A stretch of DNA of 64,000 nt from Acidobacteriota bacterium (GTDB taxonomy: Bacteria > Acidobacteriota > Terriglobia > 2-12-FULL-54-10): contig JACPPJ010000032.1 in NCBI GenBank assembly GCA_016191085.1, forward strand, positions 1 to 64,000, read 5' to 3'. Shown here in pieces: positions 5,145 to 35,444 of the stretch. The notes under the pieces are model-generated. The model ran no database searches and had not been told where the DNA came from. It was given only the letters and a program-made list of their open reading frames with translations. Made by a program: the position numbers and the translations under genes. The stretch's first letter is position 1. Each line of letters begins with the position of its first letter.

Positions 5145-5750
5145 TTGTTTCATTCGATCGAGTCAGACGGGCGGCTGGTGAAGCAAGCCCGTAAGGGTAA
5201 TGTAGAGGCGTTCAACCAACTGATTTCGCGTTGGGAGAAGCGTCTTTATAACTACCTGCTGCGCTTGATTCGACACCGGGAAGATTCGCTGGATGTTTGC
5301 CAGGAAGCGTTTCTGAAGGCGTATCGCAGCCTCAGCAGCCTGGACGACCCGGAGAAGTTTCCGCAGTGGCTCTTCCGGATTGCGCGCAACCTGGCTTTCT
5401 CTCACCTGCGTCGTGAGACGCCGCTGGAGCGCGCGGAAAGCTGGCCGGAAGATGATGGAGAAGATGCTATCCCTCACACGAGGACTTCCACCATCCCCAT
5501 TGGCTCCGCACGGAGCATGTTCGCGCTGGAGCTCGAACACACCGTTGCCAAAGCTCTGGAATGTTTGACGCCGGAGCAGCAGGAGGCAATCGTGTTGAAG
5601 GTCTACCACGGCTTTCGATTCGCCGAGATCGCCGAGATTCTTTCCTGCCCTGTGAGCACGGTGAAATCGAGAATCTACTCAGGTTTTAGCCAATTGCGCG
5701 AATTGCTTTCCGAAACGACTGCGGACGCCATATCAGACCGGCGGCGCTGA
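5145..5750 (+). CDS. ECF-type RNA polymerase sigma factor (sigma-70 family)
   Basis: Region 2 is visible as VCQEAFLKAYRSLSSLDDP followed by FPQWLFRIARNLAFSHLRR. Region 4 is visible as LTPEQQEAIVLKVYHGFRFAEIAEILSCPVSTVKSRIYSG, the helix-turn-helix that reads the -35 element. No region 3 is present, as expected for group 4 (ECF) factors. I place the start at TTG 5145, which has GGGAG eight bases upstream. TTG 5106 is possible but lies very close to the apparent -10 element. The gene precedes a zinc-finger anti-sigma factor and the type II secretion operon, so it may control them. Its promoter target is not evident. Confidence 0.9.
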   Translation: MFHSIESDGRLVKQARKGNVEAFNQLISRWEKRLYNYLLRLIRHREDSLDVCQEAFLKAYRSLSSLDDPEKFPQWLFRIARNLAFSHLRRETPLERAESWPEDDGEDAIPHTRTSTIPIGSARSMFALELEHTVAKALECLTPEQQEAIVLKVYHGFRFAEIAEILSCPVSTVKSRIYSGFSQLRELLSETTADAISDRRR

Positions 5751-5839
5751 CCGCCCGCTGTTCATCAATTTGTAGCCGCCCAAAAGCCGTTGTCATGATC
5801 GCAACTGGCAGCGTCGTTGGGGAATCTCTAGGGGGGCGG

Positions 5840-5917
5840 CCACAGCACCGGAGGCGCGAATGAGTTTGCGTATGTGAACACTTTCCGAGACGCGCCTTAG
5901 TCTCCTCGGTGCTGTGG
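5840..5917 (+). other. Long imperfect hairpin between sigma and anti-sigma genes
   Basis: CCACAGCACCGGAGG (5840-5854) pairs with CCTCGGTGCTGTGG (5904-5917) with one bulged base. An inner GGCGCG/CGCGCC pair (5853-5858 with 5891-5896) extends the stem. It lies in the 204-base gap before the anti-sigma gene and has no T-tract. It might be an attenuating or RNA-stabilising structure. Confidence 0.6.
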
Positions 5918-5954
5918 ACGCTCCCGGCGGTTCTGAAGTTAAGGAGTTTTGAAT

Positions 5955-6659
5955 ATGAACGAAGCAACACGTTGCGAACGCATTAAGCCGGCCTTGCTGG
6001 ACTTACTGATGGACGAGATCTCGCCGCAGCATCGCCGCGACGTCGAAGACCATCTGAAGACCTGCCGCACCTGCTCGGAAGAGCTGACCGAGCTACGGCG
6101 CACGGTTTCTCTTGTCGCGGCCGCAGAGAAATCCGAAGAGATGCCGCGCAGGATTCGCATTGTCGCGGAGCCTGAGAACCGCTGGGCCGCGTTGTGGCGG
6201 AACCCGGCTCGCCTGGCGTTCGCCTCGGCGGGGTTGATGTGTATTGCTATCGCCATGCTGGCGCTGTTCAGAACGACCGTTTCGTACCAGAACGGAAATC
6301 TTCAGATTGCTTTCGGAGCGCAAGCAGTCCCGTCTGCAACGATTCCGTCCGCTGCGCCTGTGGCCACCAACGCATCAGTGTCACCGGGTCGGCCGCTCGA
6401 CCGTGCACAGGTGTACGACATGATCTCCGAAGCAATGGCGGCAATGGATCGCGAACGCCAGCGCGACGCGCAGATGTTGGCCAAGCGCGTTTCGCAGCAG
6501 ATGGAACAAAAATGGCAGCAGGACCTCAGCGACGTGGCCCAGCGGTTTCGATATTTTCAGGATGCCCAAACCATCCTTTACAAGGGCCAGGTGCAGAGCC
6601 AGCAGCTCGTAAGCGCGTTGATGCAGCAATCGGAGCTGCCCGCGGCGCAGCAGCAATAA
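5955..6659 (+). CDS. Zinc-finger (zf-HC2) anti-sigma factor
   Basis: The N-terminus carries the HxxxCxxC zinc-binding signature of anti-sigma factors (His33, Cys37, Cys40 in DHLKTCRTCSEEL). One transmembrane helix follows at about residues 85-104 (LAFASAGLMCIAIAMLALF), and then a periplasmic region. The C-terminal third (about 130-234) is Gln/Arg/Glu-rich and probably a coiled coil. The expected role is to hold the upstream sigma factor at the membrane and release it on an envelope signal. ATG 5955 is fixed by AAGGAG at 5941-5946 with an eight-base spacer; TTG 5949 would be too close. The gene lies 45 bases before the next. Confidence 0.9.
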   Translation: MNEATRCERIKPALLDLLMDEISPQHRRDVEDHLKTCRTCSEELTELRRTVSLVAAAEKSEEMPRRIRIVAEPENRWAALWRNPARLAFASAGLMCIAIAMLALFRTTVSYQNGNLQIAFGAQAVPSATIPSAAPVATNASVSPGRPLDRAQVYDMISEAMAAMDRERQRDAQMLAKRVSQQMEQKWQQDLSDVAQRFRYFQDAQTILYKGQVQSQQLVSALMQQSELPAAQQQ

Positions 6660-6704
6660 CGATCGCACAAGCGGCTCCTGATCCGCTTCCGAAAGGAACT
6701 TTCA

Positions 6705-7333
6705 ATGATAAGCAAGCAAGCTGCAAAGGTGTTCGGATTCATGCTCGCCGTCGCGTTGTGGGCTTCGCCAGCTTCGGCCCAGGTCGCCGGCGGCATCCAC
6801 TCCGCTGCCATCACTGCGGACCAGCCCACCACCATTTCGCCAACCAATGTCGATCTGCATAGCCTCAAGGCGCAGATCGATGCATTCCAGAACGTTCTGA
6901 ACCGCACGATCCAGCAGAAGTTCGGGCATCCTTTTTCGCTGCTGCAGGATGCTAAGGGCATCTACCTGGCGGGTTTCGGCGTGGCATTCCATATGGAGGT
7001 GAACCTGCATCCGTTGCGCATGATGTCGCCGTTCGACCTGCGCCCCTACACGCCCGAAGAAATACGCAAATCGAAAGAGGAAAAGATTGCAAGGATCGCG
7101 CAGTTGAGGACGGAGTTAGCCGATCTATTGATGCGGCACGGCGGGCAATTGAACGCTATGGCGCCGGAGCAAAATATCGCTGTCGCCGTACATCTATTCA
7201 ATTTGCGCCCGGAAGGCCCCGATCTGCCGTCGCAGCTCGTCATGAAGGTAGACCGTCAGATGCTCCTCGATTTCCAAACTCGCCGCCTTACGGCCGAACA
7301 GTTTCAGAAGGCAGCCTCGGTGCTGGAGTTTTG

Positions 7334-7334
<1 letters not shown>
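6705..7334 (+). CDS. Exported protein of unknown function, first gene of the secretion operon
   Basis: I do not recognise the family. The 209-residue product has a clear signal peptide (FMLAVALWASPASAQVAGG). A globular part follows with two predicted helical stretches, around residues 48-70 (SLKAQIDAFQNVLNRTIQQ) and 125-150 (EEIRKSKEEKIARIAQLRTE). A GTIQQKFG/GFGVAFHMEV-like core lies between them. Its TGA overlaps the ATG of gspE (TGATG at 7332-7336), and AAAGGAAC precedes its own ATG, so it is almost certainly co-translated with the type II secretion genes. It could be a periplasmic accessory or sensor for the sigma/anti-sigma pair upstream. That role is inference. Confidence 0.8.
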
Positions 7335-9055
<1,721 letters not shown>

Positions 9056-9058
9056 ATG

Positions 9059-9093: not shown

Positions 9094-9098
9094 GGGAC

Positions 9099-10355
9099 AT
9101 GGCGAGCTTTCGTTACAGAGCGGTTACAAGCGCAGGGCAGGTACAGGAAGGCGTGCGCGAAGGCGGTTCCGAACGAGCCGTGGCGCGAGACCTCCAATCT
9201 ATGGGCTTGGTGCCGCTGCATGTCGGCGCAGCGTCAGGCACTGCCATGTCGGGCGCGCATGCTGCTCGGGGGCAGACTGATTTGTCCTCGCGCCTGAGCG
9301 CATGGTTCGCGCTGGGCGGGCGGCGCATTACCAGCCGTGACCGTCTGCTTTTCACTCAGGAACTCGCCACGCTGCTGAACGCGGGCGTTCCGGTGGACCG
9401 CGCGCTCACAATCTGTTCCGAACTCACGGAAAGCAACGCCTTGCGTGGGATCGTCTCAGACATATTGCGACGGGTCAGGTCCGGGAAATCCCTGGCGGAT
9501 GCGCTTGAGGCGCAGGGCGTCTTCAACAAGCTCTATATCAACATGGTGCGGGCAGGACAGGCGAGCGGCACGTTGCATTTGGTAATGCAACGGCTAGCCG
9601 AGTTTGAAGCATCAGCGGCGGAGTGGCGCGGAAATCTGATCTCGTCGCTCATTTATCCGGCCCTGTTAACGCTGGTCGCCATCGCATCTATCGGCGTGCT
9701 GATGAATTTCGTTATCCCTCGATTCGCTCAGGTATTCGAATCCACAGGGCTGCCCATGCCGCTGCCTACTTTCATCCTTTTGCGCGCCGGGCAACTCTTT
9801 CAGCGCTACGCATGGATGGTTATTGTCGCGATCATAGTGGCGGTGATTCTTTTTCGCCGATTCATACGAACGCCTCAAGGCCGCGAGCGCTGGGACCGAT
9901 TTCAATTGCGGGTTCCCCTTATCGGTGAGTTATTGCGTAAAGCCGAAACCGCCCGCTTCGCCCGCACTATGTCTACTTTAGTCGCCAACAGCGTTCCGCT
10001 CGTGCAGTCGCTCGGAATCGTGAAAGAGATGTCCGGCAATTGCGTCATCGCCAGCTCGCTGGATATCGTCGCGCAAGGCGTGAAGCGTGGCGAAGGCATT
10101 GCCGCGCCGGTGCGGAAATCCGGAGCGTTTCCAGCTCTGGCAGCGCATTTACTTGCGGTTGGAGAAGAAACAGGGCGCCTGGATTCCATGTTCGAGCGTC
10201 TCGCCACCGTATATGAGAACGAAACGAAAGTGACGATGCGTCGCTTAACGGCGCTGTTCGAACCCATGGTGATCTTGGGGATGGGTCTTACGGTCGGGGC
10301 GATTGTGCTTTCACTATTGATGGCCATCACCAGCATCAACGATGTGCCGTTTTAA
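9099..10355 (+). CDS. gspF: Type II secretion inner-membrane platform protein GspF
   Basis: This 418-residue protein has the GspF/PilC architecture of two copies of the T2SSF domain. The first starts near residue 80 (LLFTQELATLLNAGVPVDRAL) and includes MVRAGQASGTLHLVMQRLAEF. The second starts near residue 285 (ETARFARTMSTLVANSVPLVQSL) and includes LAVGEETGRLDSMFERLATVYE. Transmembrane helices lie around residues 190-210, 240-255 and 390-410. The short N-terminal region (FRYRAVTSAGQVQEGV) contacts the ATPase GspE in studied systems. It sits between gspE and gspG, as in classical operons. Confidence 0.95.
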   Translation: MASFRYRAVTSAGQVQEGVREGGSERAVARDLQSMGLVPLHVGAASGTAMSGAHAARGQTDLSSRLSAWFALGGRRITSRDRLLFTQELATLLNAGVPVDRALTICSELTESNALRGIVSDILRRVRSGKSLADALEAQGVFNKLYINMVRAGQASGTLHLVMQRLAEFEASAAEWRGNLISSLIYPALLTLVAIASIGVLMNFVIPRFAQVFESTGLPMPLPTFILLRAGQLFQRYAWMVIVAIIVAVILFRRFIRTPQGRERWDRFQLRVPLIGELLRKAETARFARTMSTLVANSVPLVQSLGIVKEMSGNCVIASSLDIVAQGVKRGEGIAAPVRKSGAFPALAAHLLAVGEETGRLDSMFERLATVYENETKVTMRRLTALFEPMVILGMGLTVGAIVLSLLMAITSINDVPF

Positions 10356-10361
10356 GGAGCG

Positions 10362-11426: not shown

Positions 11427-11941
11427 TGAGGCACATGAAGCATACGAACCAAACGAAGCATACGAGGAATTCGAATCCTGTGCATCCTCAGCTTCGTTTG
11501 CCTCCTTTGCCTCGAACCCAACAAGGATTCACATTGCTCGAGATCCTGGTGGCGACGGCGATCCTCGGGACCACCGTAGCCGCGCTATTCAGCTTGCTTT
11601 CTGCATCTTTGGGCAATGTGCAACGTCTTCGGGGTCCTTCGAAGGCACTGTTGCTAGGGCAGAGCCGCATGAACGAAATTCTTACTGTCGCTGCGACAAC
11701 AGCGGGTACGCCTCCGCCGATGCCGCTCGACCAAAAAATCGAAGGCCGTTGGGATGACCAGTACCGTTGGGAAGCTCTTGCCACGCCGGTGAATGTGAAC
11801 AGCGGTGATACGCCTGGCCCTGTGGTCCTGGTCCATGTTTCGCTGGATGTCTTCTGGCGCGCGGACCCCGGCAAACAGGAAAAGAAATTTTCCCTGGAGA
11901 CCGTGCAACTCTGGCCCCGGCAGCCTGAAGGAGTTCAGTGA
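11426..11941 (+). CDS. gspI: Minor pseudopilin GspI with an unusually long leader
   Basis: The prepilin motif QQG/FTLLEILVATAILGTTVAALF marks a class III leader peptide with Glu at mature position 5. The body contains LLLGQSRMNEILT, seen in GspI proteins that nucleate the pseudopilus tip. The leader is 34 residues from GTG 11426, or 31 from ATG 11435, against five to ten in studied GspI. It is encoded by repeat-like DNA (AAACGAAGC at 11451 pairs with GCTTCGTTT at 11491). GAGG four bases before ATG 11435 makes that start equally likely. A still later TTG start would give a normal leader. The stop overlaps gspJ. Confidence 0.85.
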   Translation: MRHMKHTNQTKHTRNSNPVHPQLRLPPLPRTQQGFTLLEILVATAILGTTVAALFSLLSASLGNVQRLRGPSKALLLGQSRMNEILTVAATTAGTPPPMPLDQKIEGRWDDQYRWEALATPVNVNSGDTPGPVVLVHVSLDVFWRADPGKQEKKFSLETVQLWPRQPEGVQ

Positions 11942-12669
11942 CGAGTTCAGTGACCCGGAATATCGCACCGAACAGAATGGGTGGGTTCACGCTCCTCGAG
12001 TTGCTGGTCTCCATGACCATCGTCTCTTTGCTTGCCACCACCGTGCTGTTCGGCTGGCGTGTCGCGGTCTCGGCATGGGAAAAGGCAAGCTCGCACCTGC
12101 AAAAGTCGAGGACAGTTCTGGCGACCAACCACCTGCTGCAGGAGCAGATGGCGTCGATGGTTCCTTACCGCGGAATAGCCAGCACGGGGTTCCATCTTTT
12201 CTTCCAAGGCGAGCCCCTGACGGCGCGTTTTCTGAGCCGCTATTCCCTGACCGGACGCGCGAACTCGGGCCTCTATCGCATCGAATATCAGGTTGTCGAA
12301 GCCGAGGACGGAACCAAGCAACTGTTGATGAATGAGGTGCCCGTGACCAGCCGTGAAGAGTTGGGCGCTCTCATCCAGCAAGCGGACCCTGCTTCTTTTT
12401 CACCTCAGTTGCGGTTCGCGCCTTTTGAACGCGGGCCGCGAACGGTGGTGCTGTTAGCGGGAGTGAAAGACTGCCGGTTCGAGTACTACAAGGCGGCTTC
12501 CGCCCTCGAAGCGGGAACTTGGGTCCCGGAGTGGTTAGGTACTATGAACGAACTGCCTAGAGCCATGGCGATACGCATCACACCGTCCGATGATCCGGCC
12601 GGTGTGGCACCGGCTTCGGTGGTTGCGGCGATCCGGGATTTTTCCATCGCCCCCGTGAGCACACCGTAA
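11938..12669 (+). CDS. gspJ: Minor pseudopilin GspJ
   Basis: This begins at GTG 11938 inside the gspI stop (GTGA overlap), so translation is coupled. The leader ends MGG/FTLLELLVSMTIVSLL with Glu at mature position 5. The 243-residue length and the late motif ERGPRTVVLLAGVKDCRFEY plus ELPRAMAIRITP match GspJ, which forms the tip ternary complex with GspI and GspK. The extracytoplasmic domain is beta-rich. No unusual feature apart from the GTG start. Confidence 0.9.
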   Translation: MTSSVTRNIAPNRMGGFTLLELLVSMTIVSLLATTVLFGWRVAVSAWEKASSHLQKSRTVLATNHLLQEQMASMVPYRGIASTGFHLFFQGEPLTARFLSRYSLTGRANSGLYRIEYQVVEAEDGTKQLLMNEVPVTSREELGALIQQADPASFSPQLRFAPFERGPRTVVLLAGVKDCRFEYYKAASALEAGTWVPEWLGTMNELPRAMAIRITPSDDPAGVAPASVVAAIRDFSIAPVSTP

Positions 12670-12684: not shown

Positions 12685-13770
12685 ATGATCGAGACGATTG
12701 CAAGATCAGAACAGACCCGCGACTGCCAGGCACGGCGGGGGGAGGCCGGAGCCGCTCTGCTGGCAGTGCTGTGGTTAACCGTGGCTCTCACCTTCATGGC
12801 TATGGCGACCGCGCAGTTGGTACGAACGGAGGTTGACGCAGTCCGCAACCAAATGGATTGGCAGCGCAGTTACTATCTCGCGCGTGGCGGGTTGGAGGCC
12901 GCCATTTACTCGATGGCTCGGTACGGCATCAATGTGAATAATGAGGAGCCAGACGTAACGCAAGCCTCCGAATTCGCTCCCGGCAAGCGATGGTTGCAAT
13001 ACCGGTATGACGAGGGGGAGGCCGCCGTCGAGGTGGTTCCCGAGAGCGCTAAGCTGAATGTCAATACCGCCGCGCCGGAGGAACTCGCGAGCTTGTTCGC
13101 ATCTCTCGGCGTGGAGCCGGTGGAAAGCACGAACCTAGCCGTCGCCATCGCTGAGTGGCGCTCGCCGCGCATGTCGGAGGTTGGAACGCCCCTGGACCTT
13201 TATTACGCCAACCTGCCGCAGCCATACGTACCGCGCCACGCTGCCCTCGATGAAGTCGAAGAACTGTTGCCGGTGCGGGGTATGAGCCGTGACCTGTTTT
13301 TTGGGCACGTGGAGAGAACCACGGATGGGCACTGGCGCAAATGGCCGCCGCTCGCCGATCTGCTGACGACAGAGCCGACGTACGGATTCATAAATCCGAA
13401 TTTCGCTTCGTTCGAGGTGTTGAGCAGCCTCGCTGGCTGGAATGCGGCGACCGCCGCAACGGTCATTGCCGCCAGGACGATGGCTCCGTTCCGGACTATC
13501 GAGGAACTGCAAGCGATTATACCGATGCTGGATCCGCTCACTTCCTCGCAGCGCCTAACGCTAGTGCAAGGGCCCATTTACACGTTGACCGCGACCGGCA
13601 TGACACCGAATTCAGGGGTGCGGCGCTCGGTTCGCGCGCTGGTCTATGTCTCCGCTAACCTGCCGCTTTACCACCGCGTACTGGCGTGGTGGGACGATTG
13701 GCCTTCACCCAGCGACTTGCCGCAGTCGCCGGCGAGCAACGAAACATACAGGGGTAGCAGTCCTTCATGA
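12685..13770 (+). CDS. gspK: Minor pseudopilin GspK
   Basis: This 361-residue protein has the GspK hallmarks: a leader ending EAG/AALLAVLWLTVALTF without Glu at mature position 5, then SYYLARGGLEAAIYSMARY. The helix-hairpin-helix-like SAKLNVNTAAPEELASLF and VEELLPVRGMSRDLF belong to the large alpha domain that caps the pseudopilus tip. A second helical domain with a similar pattern follows (FINPNFASFEVLSSLAG). Lack of Glu5 is normal for GspK, which sits at the outermost position. The last codon overlaps the gspL start (ATGA at 13767). Confidence 0.93.
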   Translation: MIETIARSEQTRDCQARRGEAGAALLAVLWLTVALTFMAMATAQLVRTEVDAVRNQMDWQRSYYLARGGLEAAIYSMARYGINVNNEEPDVTQASEFAPGKRWLQYRYDEGEAAVEVVPESAKLNVNTAAPEELASLFASLGVEPVESTNLAVAIAEWRSPRMSEVGTPLDLYYANLPQPYVPRHAALDEVEELLPVRGMSRDLFFGHVERTTDGHWRKWPPLADLLTTEPTYGFINPNFASFEVLSSLAGWNAATAATVIAARTMAPFRTIEELQAIIPMLDPLTSSQRLTLVQGPIYTLTATGMTPNSGVRRSVRALVYVSANLPLYHRVLAWWDDWPSPSDLPQSPASNETYRGSSPS

Positions 13771-15209: not shown

Positions 15210-15240
15210 GCGCACTTTACGCATCAGTGCGAGGAATCTT

Positions 15241-15804
15241 ATGCAATTAGCTTACAGGGATAAGGTAGCGCTGGGCGTAGCCGGTATCGGCGTCGTGCTC
15301 TATGTCCTGTTTCAGTTCGTCGTTTTCCCGGCCTGGGATTCGATGCAGGAGGTGCGGGCGAGTCTGCCGATTCAGGAAAAGAAATTGGCAAAGTACCGTG
15401 AATTGGCCGCGACCGCGCCCTTGCGCCGAACCGAAGCTTCGTCGCAGGAGGCCCGGCTGCGTGAGACCGAGGGAGGATTGCTCAACAGCAAGAACGGGGC
15501 GCTCGCCTCGGCGGAGTTGCAGCAGTTGATCAAACAACTCACCGCTGCGCAGGCGATTGATATTCGCTCCAGCGATTTCTTGCCGAGCCGGCGGCTAAGC
15601 CCGGATTACGTGCAAATTCCAGTAGGACTGCAGTTCACTGCGCGCCTGGATCAACTGGTCGGATTACTCACCGCAGCCTCCGAATCTCCCAAGCTTCTCT
15701 CGGTTTCAAGCCTGATGGTCCAAACTGGCGGCACACCAAAGGAAAGACTGATCAACGTCAACGTGCGGATTGCCGGGATCATGCGCGCCGAAACCGCGAA
15801 TTAA
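15241..15804 (+). CDS. gspM: GspM/PilO-like assembly protein
   Basis: ATG 15241 has GAGGAA with a five-base spacer; the upstream in-frame extension only overlaps gspL and is not used. The 187-residue product has one N-terminal membrane helix (VALGVAGIGVVLYVLFQFVVF), then a Glu/Arg-rich coiled coil (residues 35-80). A ferredoxin-like domain ends PKLLSVSSLMVQTGG. This is the layout of GspM and PilO, the periplasmic scaffold partner of GspL/PilN. Assignment rests on layout and position, because sequence conservation in this family is poor. Confidence 0.8.
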   Translation: MQLAYRDKVALGVAGIGVVLYVLFQFVVFPAWDSMQEVRASLPIQEKKLAKYRELAATAPLRRTEASSQEARLRETEGGLLNSKNGALASAELQQLIKQLTAAQAIDIRSSDFLPSRRLSPDYVQIPVGLQFTARLDQLVGLLTAASESPKLLSVSSLMVQTGGTPKERLINVNVRIAGIMRAETAN

Positions 15805-26184: not shown

Positions 26185-26358
26185 ACGAGGATTCTCATCG
26201 TTGATCGAAGTTCTATGAGACTTGCCTCGTCACATCATCCCTAAAAGTGGCGAAACTTTCTGTGGCATTTCGGGTTAACCTGATAGGGCTGCAAATCTAT
26301 GCCTGTGCCGCGGCACGGTTGCAACGGCTTTGCAGCAGCGAATGCGTTCAGTGCTGTG

Positions 26359-29300
26359 ATGGTTAATCAAATGTTCAGAAGGTCATCTATCAGGTGCTGC
26401 GTATTGCTGTGCGTGACCGCGATTTTTCTTCCACCGATTTCGGCTCAGCTTTGGAAACCGTTGGAAAACGCGGCGACGAGCCGAATCGTCGCTCTTGCTG
26501 CGGATCCCCGGAACGATTCAACTATTTATCTTGCCGCTCCGGGCGGAGGAATTTGGAAGAGCCAAGACAGTGGCCTTTACCGCTGGCTGCCCGTCTTTGA
26601 CTCCTCTTACTCCGTGCAGGTTTGCTCGCTGGTGCTCGATCCGAGTTCCCCAGATGTAATTTACGCAGGCACGGGCGACGATCAGAGTCCTCGCCCGGCG
26701 CAGGGCGTGGCGCGATCTTCCGATGGGGGACAAACCTGGACGACATCGGTGCGCTTTACGAACAAGCCAGTTTGTGCGCTGGCCGTTGATCCGGCAAATG
26801 GCGCGCGTGTTCTCGCGGGATCATCCGAGGGGCTGTTTCTCTCTATGGACTCCGCCTCACATTGGCGCAAGGTCCTGAGCTATCCTGTGACAGCCGTGTC
26901 TTTCGACGGCGAAGGCAACATTTACGCCGGACAACTGGGTCCGGACAGGCCCGGCGCACGCGACAACGTCTTGCTCCGATCAGTGGACGGCGGACTGAAT
27001 TGGACAAGTATCTCTTTACCTGCATCGTTAACCGTCGGCAAGACGAATTGGGTCAGCATACTAGCTCGCAGTAACAGCCTATCTGTTGCAGTCTCTTATC
27101 AAGTCAACGAAAGTTCCGGGTCAGTGCTCGACTTTTACCGAAGCACAGATAGTGGAGCTATGTGGAATATGGTGCCTGAAATCGGCGCGGCTGCACCGCC
27201 GGCGAAAATTTTTGCCGACCCATCCGGGAATATCCTCCATGTTAGTGGGAAAACTTTGCTAGTTTCGCAAGATCAGGGAAATACCTGGAAAGCTATTGGG
27301 TCCGCAACCACCCAAATTCATGATGGCATCTTTACAGTCGGATTGCTCCTGCTAGCAGGCGAGAACGGCTTGGAATCGCTCTTGCCGGGACGGGAACCGA
27401 AGCCCACTGGAACGGTGCTGCCCTTCATTCCCCTAGGACGGTTCTTCGGTGTGGCATTGGATTCTTCGAACAGACCGTGGGCGGCCGGACCGGCGGGGGT
27501 TTTCGGCCCGAATAACCTAGGCGTATTCGGACAGCCGGCCGGAAGCTTGGCCGCGTCGACCACTGGATCGAATATCTATGCGGCCGGAAACAGCGCAGTC
27601 TTTGTATCGACGAATGGCGGTACTGCTTTTTCTTCGACTGCTGTCATCGCAGCCGGAGAATTGCGGGCCGCGTATCCGCCGCTCGTAATTGATCCGAATA
27701 ACGGCGCTATTGCATATGTTGCCGGTCAGCGCGTATACCGCACGGCTAATACCGGGACCTCATGGACAGCGCTCCCAATGTTTAATCCGGATTCGACGCA
27801 CGTCGTAATCGCGCTCGCCATTTCGCCAGTCTCACGGCAGACGCTCTACGTTGCGACTGCGTGTGTTCCGGAGCTGCTCGTCGGAATTTGCAGCAACTTC
27901 TCGATCATTTGGCGTTCGTCGAATTCTGGTCAAACATGGACGAGGATCTCGGCAGTTCCCGGACTGGTGAACCAGCTCAAAGGAGATCCTCTGCAAACGA
28001 ATACGGTGTATGCCGCAATTGGAGCATTTCCGGCTGGGGCCAGTACATCAGCCGGATATGCCCCAGGCGATCTGTTGCGGTCCACTGACGGTGGAGCGAG
28101 CTGGACTTCAGTCATGGGCAATCTACCGCGTGTTCCGATCAATAGCATCGCCATTGATCCCACCTCGGTACCCGTAGCGCCGGCGCCGATTCCCGGACCT
28201 GGCGGAGGTGGCATAATTTTTTTTCCACCGGGGCAGAATCCGCGACAGCAACCGGCGCAGACTATTTATGTAGGAACCGATCTAGGCGTGTTTGTTAGTT
28301 TTAATGCAGGGACACAGTGGACCGCCATCAATTCGGGGCTTCCACCAACGCCGATCACACAACTGGCATTGCGACAGCCGGGAGCCACTTTGATGGCAGC
28401 CACATTTGGTCGTGGCATCTACCAGGCTTCGGTCATGGGGCTGAGCGCCAGTTTGATTGCGAATCCGCTTTCTCTCAACCTCACGCTGTCTCAGAACGCC
28501 AGTAAGTCCAGCCCTGTTTTGCTGGCCAACGTTTCCTCTTCCGCGGCAAATTGGAAATTGACGTCGCTCGATTCGTGGTTAACCGTGCCCCAAACGGACG
28601 GCACACTGCAACCCGCCACATCTGCAGTTGTGCTTCCGACCGTTTCCGCTGCCGCGCTTGCAGTGGGAACGCACCTAGGCCGCTTGCAAATCGCGAACGG
28701 CACACTGGCGCAGAATATCGCGCTTACTCTGCAGGTCACCGTACCACCCGCGGCAATTACGATTTCCAGCGGGGACAACGCCTCAGCCGTAGTCGGGACT
28801 ACCATACCACCTCTGGTCGTCTCAGTCCTGGACGCAAACGGTGCGCCCGTTCCCGGGCTCCCGGTGAGCTTTGCGATCGCCAGTGGAGGAGGGTCGCTCG
28901 GCGGTACAACCAGCACCACTGATGCTGGTGGAAAAGCAAGCACCGTGCTGACGTTACCCAACAGTCCGGCGACTGTTCGGGTGACGGCGACATATGGCAG
29001 CCTTTCCACGACGTTTACGGCCACTGCGGCTTTGGTGGTTGCTCCCACTCTGATGGCGAACTCGGTTGTGAACGGCGTAACGTTCACCTTAGCCGCGCCA
29101 CCGTCGCCGGGTAGCATTATCTCGATTTTCGGCGAGAACCTGGCACAATCCAGCGCATATGCCGGAGACTATCCACTGCCCACCTCTCTACAGGGTACGC
29201 GGGTCTTGTTAGCTGCGCAGGGCAGTGAAATGGAAGTACCGTTGTTCTATGTTTCACCACGGCAGGTGAACGCTTTGGTGCCGACGGACACGCCAGCAGG

Positions 29301-29760
29301 AGCATACAAGTTGCGCGTAACGGTAAATTCCGTCCCCAGCAATTCGGTCGACGTTTCTATCGTCCCATTTTCTCCAGGTATTTTTACAACCGGTGGCGGC
29401 TCGGATCAGGGAATTTTCTTGAAAACGGATGGCTCTCTGGTAAGCGTCTCGAATGCTGCTTCCCCGGGTTCGGTGATCACGCTGTTCGCGACGGGTCTGG
29501 GTGCAGTGGATCCTCCTTTGGAGGCCGGAGCACCTGCATCTTTCGACGAACCCCTGAATCGTACCATCCAGATACCGCGGCTCTTTTTCGATCGCTTCGA
29601 GGGACAAGTGCTATATAGCGGATTGGCGCCTGGCTTCGCTGGAGTTTACCAGCTCAACGTCGTCGTGCCTGCTAACGTCGCGCCGGCAGCCAACGTCTCG
29701 GTGAGTCTCTCCATTGGAGGTGTCACCAGCAAGGGCGTTGCCGTTTCGGTTCAGCCATAG
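26359..29760 (+). CDS. Exported BNR/sortilin-like propeller protein with Ig-like and TIGR03437-type C-terminal domains
   Basis: A signal peptide (SSIRCCVLLCVTAIFLPPISAQ) is followed by a long beta-propeller (about 30-700). Its blades carry Asp-box-like SxDGGxTW motifs (RSSDGGQTWTTSV, STDSGAMWNMV, SSNSGQTWTRI, STDGGASWTSV) typical of BNR/VPS10-sortilin folds. A BACON-like stretch (LSLNLTLSQNASKSSPVLLA) follows, then a Big_1-like Ig domain (VVSVLDANGAPVPGLPVSFA), then the TIGR03437-type end (FYVSPRQVNALVP, FSPGIF, TGLGAV, YSGLAPGFAGVYQLNVVVP). Start is uncertain: ATG 26359 or 26371 fits the signal peptide, while 26299 would add 20 unlikely residues. No catalytic residues are obvious, so a binding or adhesive role is inferred. 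Confidence 0.85.
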   Translation: MVNQMFRRSSIRCCVLLCVTAIFLPPISAQLWKPLENAATSRIVALAADPRNDSTIYLAAPGGGIWKSQDSGLYRWLPVFDSSYSVQVCSLVLDPSSPDVIYAGTGDDQSPRPAQGVARSSDGGQTWTTSVRFTNKPVCALAVDPANGARVLAGSSEGLFLSMDSASHWRKVLSYPVTAVSFDGEGNIYAGQLGPDRPGARDNVLLRSVDGGLNWTSISLPASLTVGKTNWVSILARSNSLSVAVSYQVNESSGSVLDFYRSTDSGAMWNMVPEIGAAAPPAKIFADPSGNILHVSGKTLLVSQDQGNTWKAIGSATTQIHDGIFTVGLLLLAGENGLESLLPGREPKPTGTVLPFIPLGRFFGVALDSSNRPWAAGPAGVFGPNNLGVFGQPAGSLAASTTGSNIYAAGNSAVFVSTNGGTAFSSTAVIAAGELRAAYPPLVIDPNNGAIAYVAGQRVYRTANTGTSWTALPMFNPDSTHVVIALAISPVSRQTLYVATACVPELLVGICSNFSIIWRSSNSGQTWTRISAVPGLVNQLKGDPLQTNTVYAAIGAFPAGASTSAGYAPGDLLRSTDGGASWTSVMGNLPRVPINSIAIDPTSVPVAPAPIPGPGGGGIIFFPPGQNPRQQPAQTIYVGTDLGVFVSFNAGTQWTAINSGLPPTPITQLALRQPGATLMAATFGRGIYQASVMGLSASLIANPLSLNLTLSQNASKSSPVLLANVSSSAANWKLTSLDSWLTVPQTDGTLQPATSAVVLPTVSAAALAVGTHLGRLQIANGTLAQNIALTLQVTVPPAAITISSGDNASAVVGTTIPPLVVSVLDANGAPVPGLPVSFAIASGGGSLGGTTSTTDAGGKASTVLTLPNSPATVRVTATYGSLSTTFTATAALVVAPTLMANSVVNGVTFTLAAPPSPGSIISIFGENLAQSSAYAGDYPLPTSLQGTRVLLAAQGSEMEVPLFYVSPRQVNALVPTDTPAGAYKLRVTVNSVPSNSVDVSIVPFSPGIFTTGGGSDQGIFLKTDGSLVSVSNAASPGSVITLFATGLGAVDPPLEAGAPASFDEPLNRTIQIPRLFFDRFEGQVLYSGLAPGFAGVYQLNVVVPANVAPAANVSVSLSIGGVTSKGVAVSVQP

Positions 29761-29816
29761 CTATCCGCAGTGTTTACCCGCAAGTCTAGGTCCGCGTGAG
29801 GTTTACGACATTAATG

Positions 29817-29822
29817 TATAAT
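29817..29822 (+). promoter_or_regulatory. -10 box (TATAAT) before the exported protein at 29907
   Basis: The TATAAT lies 85 bases upstream of ATG 29907. Transcription from it would begin after the longer alternative start at 29796, which supports the shorter protein. Confidence 0.45.
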
Positions 29823-29906
29823 GTGCAAAGCTTTCCGACTCCTGCACCTCCTCGCGCCTACTCTCGCGAAAGCAAACACAGAACAAGAACGGGGTATTTT
29901 TCCGTC

Positions 29907-32447
29907 ATGAAAAACGTACGAGTGCTCCTGCGAACTGCGCTTACGGTATCAGCGATTTTGACCTGCACGACTGCCGGTTTCAGCCAGGCAACCTGTACTG
30001 TCAGTACAGCCGCGCCACTGGTTCGCTCTCAAGGATTGACAGAGCAGATCGGCACCATTCTATTTACCAACTGCGCGGGCTCGATTCCGCCTGGAGGCGC
30101 CACCGTGGCTGTGAGTATTCAACCGGCAACGGCGCTCATTACGAATAGCCCTGCAGCCGGGTTTGTACCGACGGCAGTGATCTCCACAACAACGGGTGGA
30201 GTCACCAGCGTAGCAGCGGTGGTCAGCGGTGCGGTCAGTTCAAACACCGCAACCTTTGGTATTCCAGCAACAGCGGCCGGGGCGACGCTAGCGTCTATTC
30301 AGATTGGAGCCGTGCCCGGATTGCCGGCGACGGTTCCGATCCGCGTGAACGCATTTGCATCGGGTGTTTCGTTTCCAAATCAGGTCACCGCGTTGCTTTC
30401 GTCCTCGCCGAGCGGCGCATTGGCGGTTGATCGATCCGTTGTCTCTGTCGCGTTTCCACTGCCAGGAGTAACAGTGTCGTTTGCGCCGGGAGCAAGTATC
30501 TTCCAGGGGACTGCCCCTGCTCTTGCCGGTGTGCCCCAGACAGCAGCCTTTGTTGCCGGCGCCCTTCCAGCTTTTACGGCGACTGACACCACCACTTCGC
30601 AGGCCGTTGGCGCAAGCTCGATACCCATAGCTGTAGTTACGGAAGGCTTTGCGTCGGCGTTACTCGTAGCTGGCACGCCGCCAGCGGGCAACGGTGAAGG
30701 GTCAGACACGTCTGGCATCGGAACCCGCGTACTGATCCGACTAAATAATCTACCCGCAAACGTCGCCGTCTACGCACCACAGCTAATCACCACCACCACG
30801 GCCGGTGGAGCTCTCACGCTTGCTCTCGTAACCGGCGCTGATTCGAACGGCGCCGGCGGCTCGATATTGGCGGGCAGTGCGGCGACGGCGAGCTTGATTA
30901 GCGGTACCACGGTGACGTACGAAACTGTTGCGAGCAGCCTCCTACTGATCGAGCGAGCGGACATCCCGCTTGGCTTGTTCACGACGGGCATTCCAACCTC
31001 GACAACGATGACGATGACGGTTTTCGTGGCACCGGTCAGCTCGATAGCTACTGCTGTGGCAACGACTACTGCACCGATCCCCCGTTTTGCTGATGTCGCG
31101 GCACCGCAGTCCGTAGCACCGGGACCACCCACTATTGCAATCAGCAGCAACACTTTAGGTTTCACAGTCCCCTTTGGCGCCAGTCCCTCGCCGCAAACCT
31201 TGCGTATCACTAATGCGGGTGGCGGTGTTCTTAACTGGACGGCGGCCATTAGCTCTATTACCGGTGGCAACTGGTTGACGCTTTCGCCTACCAGCGGAGC
31301 GGCGGATACCAACATATCGATATCGGTCAACAGTTCCTCTTTGGCTGTTGGAACCTACAGTGCCACAGTTCTGTTCTCTGTGCAGGGAGCCACGAACACG
31401 CCGCTTCCCTTGACCGTGACCGTGAATGTCACTTCTACCTCGCTTTTTGTGACATCTTCCTCACTTAATTTCAGCAGCCTTTCCGGTTCTAATCCGCCGG
31501 CCCAGCAGGTGGGAATCTTGAGTGGCGGAGGAGTTTTGAGCTGGATCGCGTCGGTCAGTTCTGGCGTTGGAAACTGGTTGTCGATCTTGCCGAATGCTGG
31601 CACGACTCCTTCATCAGCTTTAGTCATGGTAAATACTGCCGGATTATCGCCGGGCACCTACCAGGGCGTCATTTCTATATCGGCTACGGGAGCATCCAAT
31701 ACGCAGAACGTGATAGTGACCCTGACGCTCGGCGCACCGGCTCCGGTCGTGGTGCCGAACGGTGTGCTGAATGGGGCGAGCTTCTCCAGGGAGGCAGTAA
31801 TTAGTCCGGGCTCATTAGTGTCCCTTTTCGGAACCGATCTGGCGACAACGACCGCGTCAATATCGACTCCGGGAGCGCCCTTGACTCTCGGCGGGACACA
31901 AGTCCTGATCAACGAATCTCCGGCTCCGTTGCTTTATGTGTCTCCCAGCCAGATTAATTTCCAGCTCCCGCCGGGAACGCAGGGACCAATTGTGCAAGTT
32001 GTTGTGGTCTCAAACGGCGTTCGTGGCACTGCGGCCACAGCGACCGTTGCTTCTACTGCACCGGGAATCTTTACGTCGTCTCCAGGCGGAATTGGCCAGG
32101 GGGCGGTTCTCAATCAGGATTCTTCCCTAAATTCTCCGCAGAACCCCGCGCAGGCCGGATCTATTGTCCAGATCTTTGCCACCGGGCTGGGCGCTACTAA
32201 TCCGCCCGCCGTTTCGGGCCAACCGGCAGGAATATCGCCGTTGAGCGAAACCGTGGTCACGCCGGTAGTGCTGATCGGAGGAGTTCAGGCGGAGGTGACT
32301 TACTCCGGCTTAGCGCCGACTACCGTGGGAGTGTATCAGATAAACGCTCGCATTCCGGCCGGGATGGCCGCGGGCAGCGCGGTGCCACTGCAGGTTCGAG
32401 TTGGTTCGGATGTCGCGAGCAATGTGGTTACACTCGCGGTACGCTAA
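29907..32447 (+). CDS. Large exported protein: shared N-terminal module, two BACON-like repeats, TIGR03437-type end
   Basis: The 846-residue product starts with a signal peptide (LLRTALTVSAILTCTTAGFSQ). Residues 27 to about 395 are the same undescribed module as in the protein at 19703 (APLVRSQGLTEQIGTILFT, VSIQPATALITNSP, FASGVSFPNQ, GADSNGAGGS, ending PIPRF). Two BACON-like Ig repeats follow (about 405-505: LRITNAGGGVLNWTA and NWLTLSPTSGAA; about 510-607: VGILSGGGVLSWIAS and NWLSILPNAG). The last 235 residues are the Solibacter-type module (YVSPSQINFQLP, TAPGIF, TGLGATNPP, YSGLAPTTVGVYQINARIP). ATG 29907 is chosen from the signal peptide and the upstream -10 box. The gene is convergent with the next. 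Confidence 0.87.
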   Translation: MKNVRVLLRTALTVSAILTCTTAGFSQATCTVSTAAPLVRSQGLTEQIGTILFTNCAGSIPPGGATVAVSIQPATALITNSPAAGFVPTAVISTTTGGVTSVAAVVSGAVSSNTATFGIPATAAGATLASIQIGAVPGLPATVPIRVNAFASGVSFPNQVTALLSSSPSGALAVDRSVVSVAFPLPGVTVSFAPGASIFQGTAPALAGVPQTAAFVAGALPAFTATDTTTSQAVGASSIPIAVVTEGFASALLVAGTPPAGNGEGSDTSGIGTRVLIRLNNLPANVAVYAPQLITTTTAGGALTLALVTGADSNGAGGSILAGSAATASLISGTTVTYETVASSLLLIERADIPLGLFTTGIPTSTTMTMTVFVAPVSSIATAVATTTAPIPRFADVAAPQSVAPGPPTIAISSNTLGFTVPFGASPSPQTLRITNAGGGVLNWTAAISSITGGNWLTLSPTSGAADTNISISVNSSSLAVGTYSATVLFSVQGATNTPLPLTVTVNVTSTSLFVTSSSLNFSSLSGSNPPAQQVGILSGGGVLSWIASVSSGVGNWLSILPNAGTTPSSALVMVNTAGLSPGTYQGVISISATGASNTQNVIVTLTLGAPAPVVVPNGVLNGASFSREAVISPGSLVSLFGTDLATTTASISTPGAPLTLGGTQVLINESPAPLLYVSPSQINFQLPPGTQGPIVQVVVVSNGVRGTAATATVASTAPGIFTSSPGGIGQGAVLNQDSSLNSPQNPAQAGSIVQIFATGLGATNPPAVSGQPAGISPLSETVVTPVVLIGGVQAEVTYSGLAPTTVGVYQINARIPAGMAAGSAVPLQVRVGSDVASNVVTLAVR

Positions 32448-32552
32448 AGTGCGGTTGTGACAAATAGTCGGTAGACTGGTTTGGCCACTGGCTGCAGCTG
32501 GCATTGTTGCGTCGGTGGGGTAAGTCTTTACGATGGGCGACGCGCGTCGAAG

Positions 32553-35444
32553 TCAAGGAGTAACGTTCATATACGTGGTGTTGCTAGTCGTACCGCCCAT
32601 CTCCAGGACCACGGACACTCTTCCGTTCAATCCGGAGGGGACAACGAAGTTCACCTGGTACACACCGATCATGCCGGGTGCCAGTCCAGAAAAAAGGACG
32701 GTTGCCTGAACGCCTCCCACTCGCAAAACCGGCAGTGTATTGGTCGTCGAGAGAGTGGAAGATGCCGCCGGGTAGCCGCTCGCCACGGTAGGAGTCACAG
32801 CGCCCAATCCGCTGGCATATACGACTAGCTCCTCGCCTGCGCGTCCGGGGGAAGCATCTGAGACGCGGATATTGCCGGAGTGGAACACGTTTCCATCCGC
32901 TCCAGTCTGAAAAATTCCTGGACTGACGTCACTTCGCCTAAGTCGTACTGTTGCCTGACCTTGAGCATTGGCGAGCGTTACCTCTGCGAGCGGTCCGGAA
33001 GTTCCGTAGGGCACCAAAAAATTCACTTGCGTCGGGGAGACAGAAAACAGCGGTGCAGGAGCACCGTTTACCGTCACCGTGGTGTTAGTCAGAGAAACCG
33101 GCAGGGGAAACGGAGTAGCGGGAGTTGCGATTGTGGACGCTAGGTTGCCCCCCGAAAGCACAGCGGACATTCCCGGGGACAGAGGCGCCGGATTAAAACT
33201 TGCCGAGTTGACCAGCGCACCCAGATATGGAACGTTTAGTGAAGTGGCCAAAGCGAAGGCACCGCGTCCGTGGGTTGCGGCGACCAGCAGGCCGGTAGTA
33301 GAGTTCTGCGAAAGCCCTAGCACGATCGCGTTTGGCAGGCCCTGGTTTAAAGGAGTCCACGAGCCATCTGGCGCCAGCACGAAAACGCCGATGTCCGTTC
33401 CCAGGTACACTCGATCCGGAGAATGTGTGTCTATCAAAACGCAATTCACAGGGATATCGGGCAAGTTGGAACTCACGTCCTGCCAACTCACGCCGCTGTT
33501 TTCCGTCCGGAAAACATGACCGCTCCCGAAACCGGATACGCTTACATAAGCAAATTGTGGAAGCTGCGGATGGATCGCAATAGAAGTGACGAAGCGATTA
33601 GGCAGAGCCGCCGTGGGTGCCCAATTCCTGCCATTGTCATTTGAAACTTTCACCAACCCGTCGCTTGTGCCCGCATAGAGCACCTGAGGAGTACTGGACG
33701 AAACAGCCAAGGCACTGATCGTGGCGGAGCGTCCTCCCGTAAGGTCTCCGGATACGGGGAACCAATGGTCTCCTCGATCGCCGGTGGTCCAGACTCGTTG
33801 TGTGCCGAAATACAAGACGCTCTGGCCCGGTACCACGACTAAGGGAGGATAAAACTGCACCCGGTCTGTGGGATCGATGGTTTGCTTCAACAGTGGCCAG
33901 GTCTGGCCGCCATCATCAGATCGAAATATGTCAAAATAGTGGCCAGTCGTGTAGAGCGTCTGAGGACTCATGCTATCGTAGAATGCGGTGCCTGCATCGC
34001 CAAGCCGCCCCTGATCCCAGGCAAAGCCGCCTCCGTAGAGAATCGTGCCATGGTCTTGCGTCGCGCCGACCGACAGATTTGGATTGGTCGGATGCAAGCC
34101 GACATTCTGGAATTGTGTGATGGCGAGCGTCTGGTTCAGGCTCGCAAATCTCTGGCCGCCGTCAGAAGACTTCCAAACACCGCTGTTATTGATCAGATAG
34201 AACGTCTGCGGCTCCGACGGATCGAAGACGACATCATGCTGGCCCTCTGCAATCAGCAGATTTCTCCAACTATTTCCGCCGTCGCTTGTTTTCCACAAAT
34301 CCGAAGCGCCTGCATAAATGACTGCTGGATTCTGCGGGTCAACCTTCACTGTCAAATTGAATAGGCCAACTGCAAAGGGACCTTCCATAAGTGCTTCAGG
34401 AGGAAAACTTGAGATGTTGGTCCAAGTGTTTCCTCCATCGCGCGTCCGATAAAGCCCGTTCAGAGTGAAATCGTTTGAACGCGCAATCAGCGCGTATACG
34501 GTAGAGGGCGAGTTGCGATCTACGGCCAATGCAATCCGGCCAATGGTCTCTTGAGCCGGAAGACCTCCAGCCAGCCGGGTCCACGTTTGCCCGCCGTCAC
34601 TGGTTCTGTAGATGCCATTTTCAGAGCTGCCGAAAGCGTTTCCGACTGCTGCGTAAGCCACGTTGCTGTCTACCGGGTTCAAGACGAAACCGGTGATTAC
34701 GCCAAGCAGGACCGTACGAAAACTTTGACCACCATCGGAAGATTTCCATAGAGCTGTGGAGCGCCCGATGAACAAGGTACCCTGATTTTGTTTGTCAAAT
34801 ACAATCAAAGATGTCGCAGAAGATAGAAAAGTATCGGAGGCCACGCGATTCCAGGTGGCGCCCCCATCCGGAGACCTGTAAACGCCAGCGCCATAATAAC
34901 AATCACGGCAAAAGTTCAGCTCACCGGTTCCGTACCAGACTTCACCGGAGAAAGGGTCCACCGCCACCGCACCGGAGGCGAGAGACGGAAGGTTGTCGGT
35001 CAACGGCACCCACCCCAAGCCACGATTAGAAGATTTCCACACGCCCCCGCCAGCGGCTGCCAAATACACGAAAGAGGGATTAGTAGGATCGACCGCCAAA
35101 CTGGTGACACGACCGCTAACCAGACCACGTGTCGGCGAGTTGATTACGGTTGGACCAATGCTCACCCACTGATTATCAAGCGCAGCGGCGCTTCCGTCAT
35201 CATCCTGACTCCGAAAGCCCCTGCTACGGAGCATCGATTCTCGTTGGGAGATTGCTTTCAACAATCCGTCATCGGGAATACGGCCCAATCCGTAGCTTCG
35301 GCGGCTGTAAAACGAATCTTGTGAGGGAAACCATCCAAGCGACGGCGACACGGTCTGAGAGAGCGCTAGATGTGGCAGCGACCAAGCCAAGGCACAGAGC
35401 GCGATCCTCCCCAATCGCCGGACCGAAGGAAAACAGAACTTCAT
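32553..35444 (-). CDS. Exported BNR/VPS10-sortilin-like propeller protein with TIGR03437-type C-terminal domain
   Basis: The 963-residue protein has a signal peptide (LGRIALCALAWSLPHLALSQ). A long propeller (about 90-730) follows, with many repeated Asp-box blades: WKSSNRGLGWVPL, RSPDGGATWNRV, KSSDGGQSFRTV, RTSDGGQTWTRL, RTRDGGNTWTNI, KTSDGGNSWRNL, RSDDGGQTWPLL. Spacing and linker strands (VDPxNPxxVYA) resemble the two-propeller layout of sortilin/VPS10-like bacterial proteins and xyloglucanase folds. The catalytic Asp of GH74 enzymes cannot be assigned with confidence. The last 230 residues are the Solibacter module (FSVSPTQVNFLVPYG, VSPGIF, SGLGAV, FSGLAPGMIGVYQVNFVVP). It converges on the gene at 29907. 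Confidence 0.87.
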   Translation of the reverse strand: MKFCFPSVRRLGRIALCALAWSLPHLALSQTVSPSLGWFPSQDSFYSRRSYGLGRIPDDGLLKAISQRESMLRSRGFRSQDDDGSAAALDNQWVSIGPTVINSPTRGLVSGRVTSLAVDPTNPSFVYLAAAGGGVWKSSNRGLGWVPLTDNLPSLASGAVAVDPFSGEVWYGTGELNFCRDCYYGAGVYRSPDGGATWNRVASDTFLSSATSLIVFDKQNQGTLFIGRSTALWKSSDGGQSFRTVLLGVITGFVLNPVDSNVAYAAVGNAFGSSENGIYRTSDGGQTWTRLAGGLPAQETIGRIALAVDRNSPSTVYALIARSNDFTLNGLYRTRDGGNTWTNISSFPPEALMEGPFAVGLFNLTVKVDPQNPAVIYAGASDLWKTSDGGNSWRNLLIAEGQHDVVFDPSEPQTFYLINNSGVWKSSDGGQRFASLNQTLAITQFQNVGLHPTNPNLSVGATQDHGTILYGGGFAWDQGRLGDAGTAFYDSMSPQTLYTTGHYFDIFRSDDGGQTWPLLKQTIDPTDRVQFYPPLVVVPGQSVLYFGTQRVWTTGDRGDHWFPVSGDLTGGRSATISALAVSSSTPQVLYAGTSDGLVKVSNDNGRNWAPTAALPNRFVTSIAIHPQLPQFAYVSVSGFGSGHVFRTENSGVSWQDVSSNLPDIPVNCVLIDTHSPDRVYLGTDIGVFVLAPDGSWTPLNQGLPNAIVLGLSQNSTTGLLVAATHGRGAFALATSLNVPYLGALVNSASFNPAPLSPGMSAVLSGGNLASTIATPATPFPLPVSLTNTTVTVNGAPAPLFSVSPTQVNFLVPYGTSGPLAEVTLANAQGQATVRLRRSDVSPGIFQTGADGNVFHSGNIRVSDASPGRAGEELVVYASGLGAVTPTVASGYPAASSTLSTTNTLPVLRVGGVQATVLFSGLAPGMIGVYQVNFVVPSGLNGRVSVVLEMGGTTSNTTYMNVTP

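What the first reader, a model, noticed from the sequence alone, without database searches (positions are those of the whole stretch)
5145..35444. Possible self-contained secretion system: sigma/anti-sigma pair, type II secretion operon and tagged exported cargo
Seen: a sigma factor, an anti-sigma factor and an exported protein precede a complete gspE-F-G-H-I-J-K-L-M-C-D operon. Directly downstream lie five proteins of 559-1133 residues with signal peptides. Four of them end in the same ~235-residue module with VSPxQVNFxxP, APGIF, GLGAV and SGLAPGxxGxYQ motifs. Known: this is the Solibacter C-terminal domain (TIGR03437), of unknown role and very abundant in that lineage. Inference: the module could be a type II secretion sorting or surface-anchoring tag, much as PEP-CTERM or the T9SS C-terminal domain are for other systems.
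Basis: partly seen in the sequence, partly recalled or inferred. Interest (0 to 1): 0.75.

Follow-up and report, generated by a model that had tools for sequence, protein, structure and literature searches.

The report
Acidobacterial type II secretion cargo island
A soil bacterium's protein-export machine sits in a conserved gene island with its likely cargo; the repeated end-module thought to be the export tag is really a pair of common immunoglobulin-like domains that also occurs where this machine is missing, while a neighbouring secreted protein with an unusual conserved tail follows the machine much more closely.

Summary
Observation confirmed: ECF sigma, zinc-finger anti-sigma, exported protein, gspE-F-G-H-I-J-K-L-M-C-D, then five exported proteins, four ending in TIGR03437.

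New: the island is conserved. In related genomes gspD is followed by a homologue of the 559-aa protein (8 of 12) and a same-strand TIGR03437 protein within 4.2 kb (6 of 12; 0.3 expected by chance).

The "T2SS tag" reading fails as stated. TIGR03437 is two tandem IPT/TIG Ig-like domains. Eleven of 11 genomes of one family carry 27-119 copies without canonical GspD. An archaeal MAG without any secretin has one. Some copies are N-terminal. Yet outside that family 14 of 15 TIGR03437-rich genomes have GspD.

The 559-aa protein tracks the T2SS better: its C-terminal domain is in all 15 GspD-positive Bryobacterales-type genomes and 0 of 30 others examined, ending in E-x-L-x-[HNQ]-COOH. Its N-terminal region also occurs fused to TIGR03437.

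Likely: dedicated T2SS cargo plus general surface Ig modules.

The parts
5106..5750 (+). ECF sigma factor
   Evidence: PF04542/PF08281; homologue just upstream of the T2SS genes in 10 of 11 related genomes with upstream sequence
5949..6659 (+). zinc-finger anti-sigma factor
   Evidence: PF13490 24.8 bits over cut-off 22.2; homologue in G276
6705..7334 (+). conserved exported protein of unknown family (orf3)
   Evidence: no Pfam/NCBIfam match; homologue upstream of gspE in 8 of 11 related genomes and in G041 and G057
7331..9055 (+). GspE
   Evidence: TIGR02533 653 bits, over cut-off
9099..10355 (+). GspF
   Evidence: PF00482
10458..10937 (+). GspG major pseudopilin
   Evidence: PF08334 132 bits
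10956..11426 (+). GspH
   Evidence: PF12019 35.5 bits
11426..11941 (+). GspI
   Evidence: TIGR01707 36.1 bits, below cut-off 44.35; N-methylation motif
11938..12669 (+). GspJ
   Evidence: PF11612 24.5 bits, below cut-off 28; N-methylation motif
12685..13770 (+). GspK
   Evidence: PF03934, PF21687 over cut-off
13767..15209 (+). GspL (PilM/PilN-like)
   Evidence: PF05137 53 bits; TIGR01709 weak
15010..15804 (+). GspM (frame; true start probably near the end of gspL)
   Evidence: NF040576 79 bits, over cut-off 60
16058..16771 (+). GspC candidate
   Evidence: NF041515 E 0.0025, far below cut-off; homologues at the same place in G175, G314, G310, G315, G319, G309
16747..19128 (+). GspD secretin
   Evidence: TIGR02517 430 bits, over cut-off
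19703..21382 (+). p559: exported protein, T2SS-linked family, C-terminal end GEALGH
   Evidence: no Pfam/NCBIfam family; homologues next to gspD in 7 other genomes; profile in 15 of 45 genomes; C-terminal motif
21689..22510 (-). DUF1573 protein, conserved neighbour
   Evidence: PF07610; near p559 in G308, G309, G311, G312, G317 and in G175 contig C62
22816..26142 (+). SBBP/CoaZ-repeat exported protein with C-terminal TIGR03437 (module about 25474-26139)
26299..29760 (+). Vps10/BNR-repeat exported protein with C-terminal TIGR03437 (module about 29065-29754)
29796..32447 (+). p559-like N-terminal region + BACON + C-terminal TIGR03437 (module about 31764-32444)
32553..35444 (-). Vps10/BNR-repeat exported protein with C-terminal TIGR03437 (module about 32562-33212)

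Best explanation
The locus is a canonical, ECF-sigma-linked type II secretion island with its own cargo cassette. Proteins cross the inner membrane by Sec (or Tat), fold in the periplasm and leave through GspD. The most T2SS-bound cargo or partner is p559, a secreted protein with a lineage-specific C-terminal domain ending in E-x-L-x-[HNQ]-COOH. TIGR03437 is a tandem pair of IPT/TIG Ig-like domains at the C-terminus of many exported hydrolases and propeller proteins. It most likely works outside the cell as an adhesive, anchoring or spacer module. TIGR03437 proteins probably leave by the T2SS where there is one, but the module is not the T2SS address. Shown: gene content, conserved synteny, co-occurrence, fold of the module, tail motif. 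Inferred: that p559 and the TIGR03437 proteins are T2SS substrates, that the sigma/anti-sigma pair controls the island, and the surface role.
For: T2SS genes complete by order, with E, G, M and D over curated cut-offs. Island conserved: sigma upstream in 10 of 11 related genomes, p559 downstream of gspD in 8 of 12, same-strand TIGR03437 protein within 4.2 kb in 6 of 12 against 0.31 expected. p559 C-terminal domain in 15 of 45 genomes, exactly the 15 GspD-positive Bryobacterales/Terriglobia-type ones; 0 of 11 other GspD-positive and 0 of 19 without full-length GspD. Tail motif: E at -5 in 18 of 19, L at -3 in 16 of 19, H/N/Q at -1 in 18 of 19; the pattern in 14 p559-family ends and 1 other among 1800 frames. 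TIGR03437 fold: pLDDT 94.5, Pfam TIG in 42 of 50 members, halves homologous (hhalign E 7e-16), IPT-type folds in the PDB. TIGR03437 without canonical T2SS: f71 11 of 11 and an archaeal MAG. Passengers are typical extracellular proteins: two subtilases, matrixin, CotH, kelch, purple acid phosphatase, among 10 scanned.
Against: No secretion data exist. p559 lies away from the T2SS in some genomes (G175, G307, G313-G316, G319), so the link there is co-occurrence only. The 15 genomes are related, and 12 of them were picked because they carry TIGR03437. GspC, GspI, GspJ and GspL rest mainly on gene order. The strong C-terminal bias of TIGR03437 (21 of 24, 78 of 85 and 18 of 20 proteins) and its co-occurrence with GspD outside f71 (14 of 15) remain unexplained by a mere spacer. 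f71 might export through its own divergent F-E-secretin operon.
Confidence: 0.6

Rival explanations
1. TIGR03437 is a T2SS sorting tag in Bryobacterales-type genomes; f71 uses the same tag with its divergent F-E-secretin-pseudopilin machine.
For: 14 of 15 TIGR03437-rich genomes outside f71 have full-length GspD, while the 33 sampled genomes of family f2 in the same class have neither full-length GspD nor strong TIGR03437; TIGR03437 protein next to gspD in 6 of 12; p559's own C-terminal domain and TIGR03437 interchange as C-terminal halves; strong C-terminal bias; phylum-wide association odds ratio 5.5, Fisher p 0.011, uncorrected for kinship.
Against: Module in an archaeal MAG without secretin; N-terminal copies; p559 sits in the same cassette without the module; 33 of 38 GspD-positive genomes in the sample lack strong TIGR03437; fold is a common Ig building block.
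Confidence: 0.2
2. The cargo-like genes beside the T2SS are unrelated surface proteins kept together by common descent; T2SS and TIGR03437 merely share a lineage.
For: TIGR03437 is scattered over the whole genome (39 matches in many contigs), tandem clusters occur elsewhere (C24, C59, C11); no TIGR03437 gene near gspD in G175, G276 or in the seven non-Terriglobia GspD regions read.
Against: p559-gspD adjacency persists at 28-40% protein identity in 8 of 12 genomes, and p559 is absent from all 19 genomes without full-length GspD that were examined; expected chance adjacency of TIGR03437 0.31 of 12 against 6 (assuming independence).
Confidence: 0.2

Closest known systems
Canonical type II secretion system (Gsp, GspC-GspM)
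   Same: GspE, GspG, GspM and GspD over curated cut-offs and gene order E-F-G-H-I-J-K-L-M-C-D
   Different: ECF sigma, anti-sigma and an exported orf3 ahead of gspE, and a p559/TIGR03437/DUF1573 cassette behind gspD
TIGR03437 / IPT-TIG Ig-like domain (PF01833)
   Same: All four window modules pass the TIGR03437 cut-off; 42 of 50 members match Pfam TIG; high-confidence two-domain Ig model
   Different: Two divergent IPT units as a fixed pair with C-terminal bias; named so far only as an uncharacterized C-terminal, paralogous domain (NCBIfam text)
T9SS C-terminal domain (comparison from memory)
   Same: Ig-like beta-sandwich at the C-terminus of many varied exported proteins
   Different: About 225 aa in two domains rather than one short domain; not always C-terminal; T9SS genes were not searched for
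PEP-CTERM/exosortase (comparison from memory; only the start of the abstract of PMC1569441 seen in the listing)
   Same: Many paralogous exported proteins share one C-terminal module
   Different: No short tripartite signal; the module ends in a beta strand

Membership tests
Type II secretion system | full-length GspD secretin with N-terminal domains | tested here: met
   TIGR02517 430 bits, model 2-597 of 600; N0 domain PF21305
Type II secretion system | GspE ATPase of T2SS type | tested here: met
   TIGR02533 653 bits over cut-off 630; PilB model below its own cut-off
Type II secretion system | major pseudopilin GspG and GspF | tested here: met
   PF08334, PF00482
Type II secretion system | minor pseudopilins H, I, J, K | tested here: inconclusive
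   H and K over Pfam cut-offs; I and J below cut-offs, placed by order
Type II secretion system | assembly platform GspL, GspM and GspC | tested here: inconclusive
   M over cut-off; L by PilN/weak TIGR01709; C only E 0.0025 to NF041515
Type II secretion system | secretion of folded periplasmic proteins through GspD | not testable with these tools
   needs a mutant and an exoproteome
TIGR03437 (Soli_cterm) | score over curated cut-off 29.05 | tested here: met
   four window copies 176-226 bits
IPT/TIG domain | sequence match over Pfam gathering score and Ig-like fold | tested here: met
   TIG 36.3 bits against 20.9 for the 31764-32444 module, 42 of 50 members match at E up to 0.01; model pLDDT 94.5
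C-terminal sorting tag of a dedicated secretion system | strictly C-terminal | tested here: not met
   ends within 15 aa of the C-terminus in 21/24, 78/85 and 18/20 proteins; N-terminal copies in L136, L192, L261, L265 and tandem in L135
C-terminal sorting tag of a dedicated secretion system | found only with the cognate machinery (canonical T2SS) | tested here: not met
   11 of 11 f71 genomes rich in TIGR03437 without canonical GspD; archaeal MAG
PEP-CTERM/sortase-type signal | short motif, membrane helix, basic cluster at the C-terminus | tested here: not met
   C-termini end in a beta strand, last residues mostly Q/P/R after V/A/I
T9SS cargo | T9SS machinery in the genome | not tested

The most novel reading that the evidence does not exclude
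Bryobacterales-type Acidobacteriota have a T2SS with a dedicated cargo family (p559) whose last five residues, E-x-L-x-[HNQ]-COOH behind a linker of variable length, are an export, retention or processing signal. The same passenger region can instead be fused to TIGR03437, so the lineage uses two interchangeable C-terminal address modules on its surface proteins, controlled by an in-locus ECF sigma switch.
Probability: 0.22. Interest if true: 0.78.

Novelty: new variant of a known kind. Interest (0 to 1): 0.55.

Why it matters
T2SS substrates share no generally known linear signal (established knowledge, recalled), so a secreted family that tracks the machine genome by genome, often sits beside gspD and has a conserved five-residue tail is a direct handle on recognition. 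The work also gives TIGR03437, a domain with tens to over a hundred copies per genome in soil-type bacteria, a fold, and shows that it cannot simply mark T2SS cargo.

Tried and rejected
First conclusion overturned: after I took f71 for the Solibacter lineage and thought that TIGR03437-rich genomes simply lack T2SS. Named genomes showed that Bryobacterales-type genomes nearly all have GspD; f71 is another, unnamed family (no close DNA match to the named loci).

PF03934 (GspK) was not discriminating: it rings in Bacillus and other control genomes. Any-secretin presence is useless as a test: 295 of 297 genomes match TIGR02517 at E 0.001.

Contamination as the explanation of the archaeal copy was tested and not favoured: the contig is 35% GC like three other contigs of that MAG, gene GC3 0.32, an AglJ-like gene nearby. 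One MAG remains thin evidence.

PDB sequence searches with the module found nothing useful; GspC candidate likewise. Structural neighbour 8co1_A2 (Z 8.8, 2.4 A over 85 residues, 31% identity) belongs to an entry holding a Deinococcus secretin, DR_0774. It hints that an IPT-type domain can sit at a secretin; no paper on it was found (listings only), so it is a lead, not evidence.

p559 C-terminal domain folded alone gave pLDDT 43.6, not used. Module tree: f71 copies need only 2 changes on the tree, so mostly own expansions.

Literature: no paper of the library holds the term TIGR03437; searches gave nothing on its function; only listings and abstract starts were seen, no paper was opened. PMC only, so absence is limited to that library. 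p559 has no Pfam or NCBIfam model.

Rows dropped: one search kept 19 of 23 p559-domain proteins (dropped: a repeat protein, a weak partial match, and two whose ends do not match the family, their frames running through unreadable stretches). One search left out proteins whose C-end lies outside the locus. G315, G316 and G319 were left out of the synteny denominators because the contig ends near gspD.
Full report
What is there. The window is the first 64 kb of an 80.9-kb contig of a 3.47-Mb, 88%-complete acidobacterial MAG. The stated genes are all present in the stated order. GspE, GspG, GspM and GspD pass curated cut-offs. GspI, GspJ, GspL and GspC are weak matches named by order. Five exported proteins follow (559, 1108, 1153, 883, 963 aa). 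The last four end in TIGR03437. The genome holds 39 TIGR03437 matches.

What the module is. The 50-member alignment A3 (window plus genome-contig loci) gave an AlphaFold2 model of pLDDT 94.5 and pTM 0.89, all beta. Pfam TIG matches 42 of 50 members. Splitting the alignment in two and comparing the halves gives hhalign probability 98.6%, E 7e-16. PDB neighbours are IPT-type Ig domains: amylase/CGTase (Z up to 11.6), plexins and Met (Z about 9), Bacteroides surface glycan-binding proteins. So TIGR03437 is a tandem pair of IPT/TIG domains. It ends within 15 residues of the C-terminus in 21 of 24 own-genome proteins, 78 of 85 from the genome-contig loci and 18 of 20 from family f71, but some copies lie just behind the signal peptide. 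Ten own-genome carriers scanned with Pfam include two subtilases, a matrixin, CotH, kelch and purple acid phosphatase.

Is it a T2SS tag? In 297 phylum genomes, GspD of T2SS type (my line: at least 273 bits; 38 genomes; the tool's tally over the curated cut-off is 28) and strong TIGR03437 (over 75 bits; 12 genomes) coincide in 5 (Fisher p 0.011 without kinship correction). The counterexample is family f71: 11 of 11 genomes carry 27-119 matches, none a canonical GspD (best 170 bits, C-terminal half only). GspE agrees in the 9 tested (f71 has only the type next to a roughly 1000-aa secretin, or one next to a PilT-like gene), as does GspG in 3 tested. f71 does have a divergent F-E-secretin-pseudopilin operon, so "no T2SS-like genes at all" would be wrong. 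In favour of a link: I took 15 genomes behind the genome-contig hits (79 loci kept of 545 confirmed candidates; chosen for carrying TIGR03437). Thirteen are acidobacterial with 27-102 copies; 12 of these 13 have full-length GspD. With G000 and G175, 14 of 15 rich genomes outside f71 have it. An archaeal MAG (record titled Thermoplasmatota) has one TIGR03437 protein and no secretin match; its contig composition agrees with the rest of that MAG and one neighbour resembles archaeal AglJ.

The conserved island. I read the gspD surroundings of G000, G175, G276 and the 12 GspD-positive genomes behind the genome-contig loci. Upstream: an ECF sigma homologue in 10 of 11 genomes with sequence there, orf3 in 8 of 11. 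Downstream, of 12 genomes with at least 6 kb: a p559 homologue in 8 (G000, G276, G308, G309, G310, G311, G312, G317) and a same-strand TIGR03437 protein within 4.2 kb in 6 (G000, G309, G310, G311, G312, G314); 0.31 expected from copy density, P 2e-7 if independent, which related genomes are not. The TIGR03437 proteins of G309, G311 and G312 are full-length orthologues (32-34% over about 1180 aa); G310 is more distant; the G000 proteins share only the C-terminal part. G175 has p559, the orthologue of the large protein (35% over 1256 aa to G312; no TIGR03437 score) and DUF1573 on another contig, so the cassette can move as a unit.

p559. Residues 6-401 are 40% identical to the N-terminal region of the window's 883-aa TIGR03437 protein, so one passenger type bears two different C-terminal parts. 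A profile of the p559 C-terminal domain matched 15 of 45 genomes: all 15 GspD-positive Bryobacterales/Terriglobia-type genomes, 0 of 9 f71, 0 of 4 f2, 0 of 4 f21, 0 of 11 other GspD-positive, 0 of the two remaining genomes without full-length GspD (G318, G305). The extreme C-terminus is conserved behind a linker of variable length: E at -5 in 18 of 19, L at -3 in 16 of 19, H/N/Q at -1 in 18 of 19. Among 1800 unique frames of at least 200 aa in all fetched loci the pattern E.L.[HNQ] ends 14 p559-family proteins and one other.

Reading. The island is most likely a regulated T2SS with its own cargo cassette. p559 is the best candidate for dedicated cargo or a secretin partner. TIGR03437 is a general extracellular Ig-like module that the lineage has multiplied; its carriers may well use the T2SS, but the module does not by itself mark them for it. 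Export has not been shown for any of these proteins.

Noticed in passing
L296:14720-17029 (G305:C8): A TIGR03437 protein (769 aa, module at the very C-terminus, 234 bits) in a MAG titled Candidatus Thermoplasmatota; contig GC 35% like the rest of the MAG, no secretin in that genome.
   Followed up: partly
L102, L103, L104 (family f71): F-E-secretin (1030-1107 aa)-pseudopilin operon, a divergent T2SS/T4P-like system; f71 lacks canonical T2SS yet is rich in TIGR03437.
   Followed up: partly
PDB 8co1 chain A2 against module residues 95-227: An IPT-like chain in an entry that also holds the Deinococcus radiodurans secretin DR_0774 resembles the second half of TIGR03437 (Z 8.8, 31% identity over 85 residues).
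   Followed up: partly
window:6705-7334: Exported protein without any family match that is conserved upstream of gspE also outside the class (G041, G057).
   Followed up: partly
window:22816-26142: Carries NF058597 choice-of-anchor Z repeats and SBBP propeller repeats ahead of TIGR03437.
   Followed up: no
L158 / G306: A gammaproteobacterial MAG with 2 TIGR03437 copies and a full-length GspD (479 bits): transfer or binning error, not decided.
   Followed up: no
L289 (G310:C12:338984-340471): A 1580-aa frame with several tandem matches to the p559 C-terminal domain.
   Followed up: no
L304 (G000:C24:8110-17535): Second p559-like gene of the genome lies among three TIGR03437 genes or fragments, again linking the two families.
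   Followed up: partly
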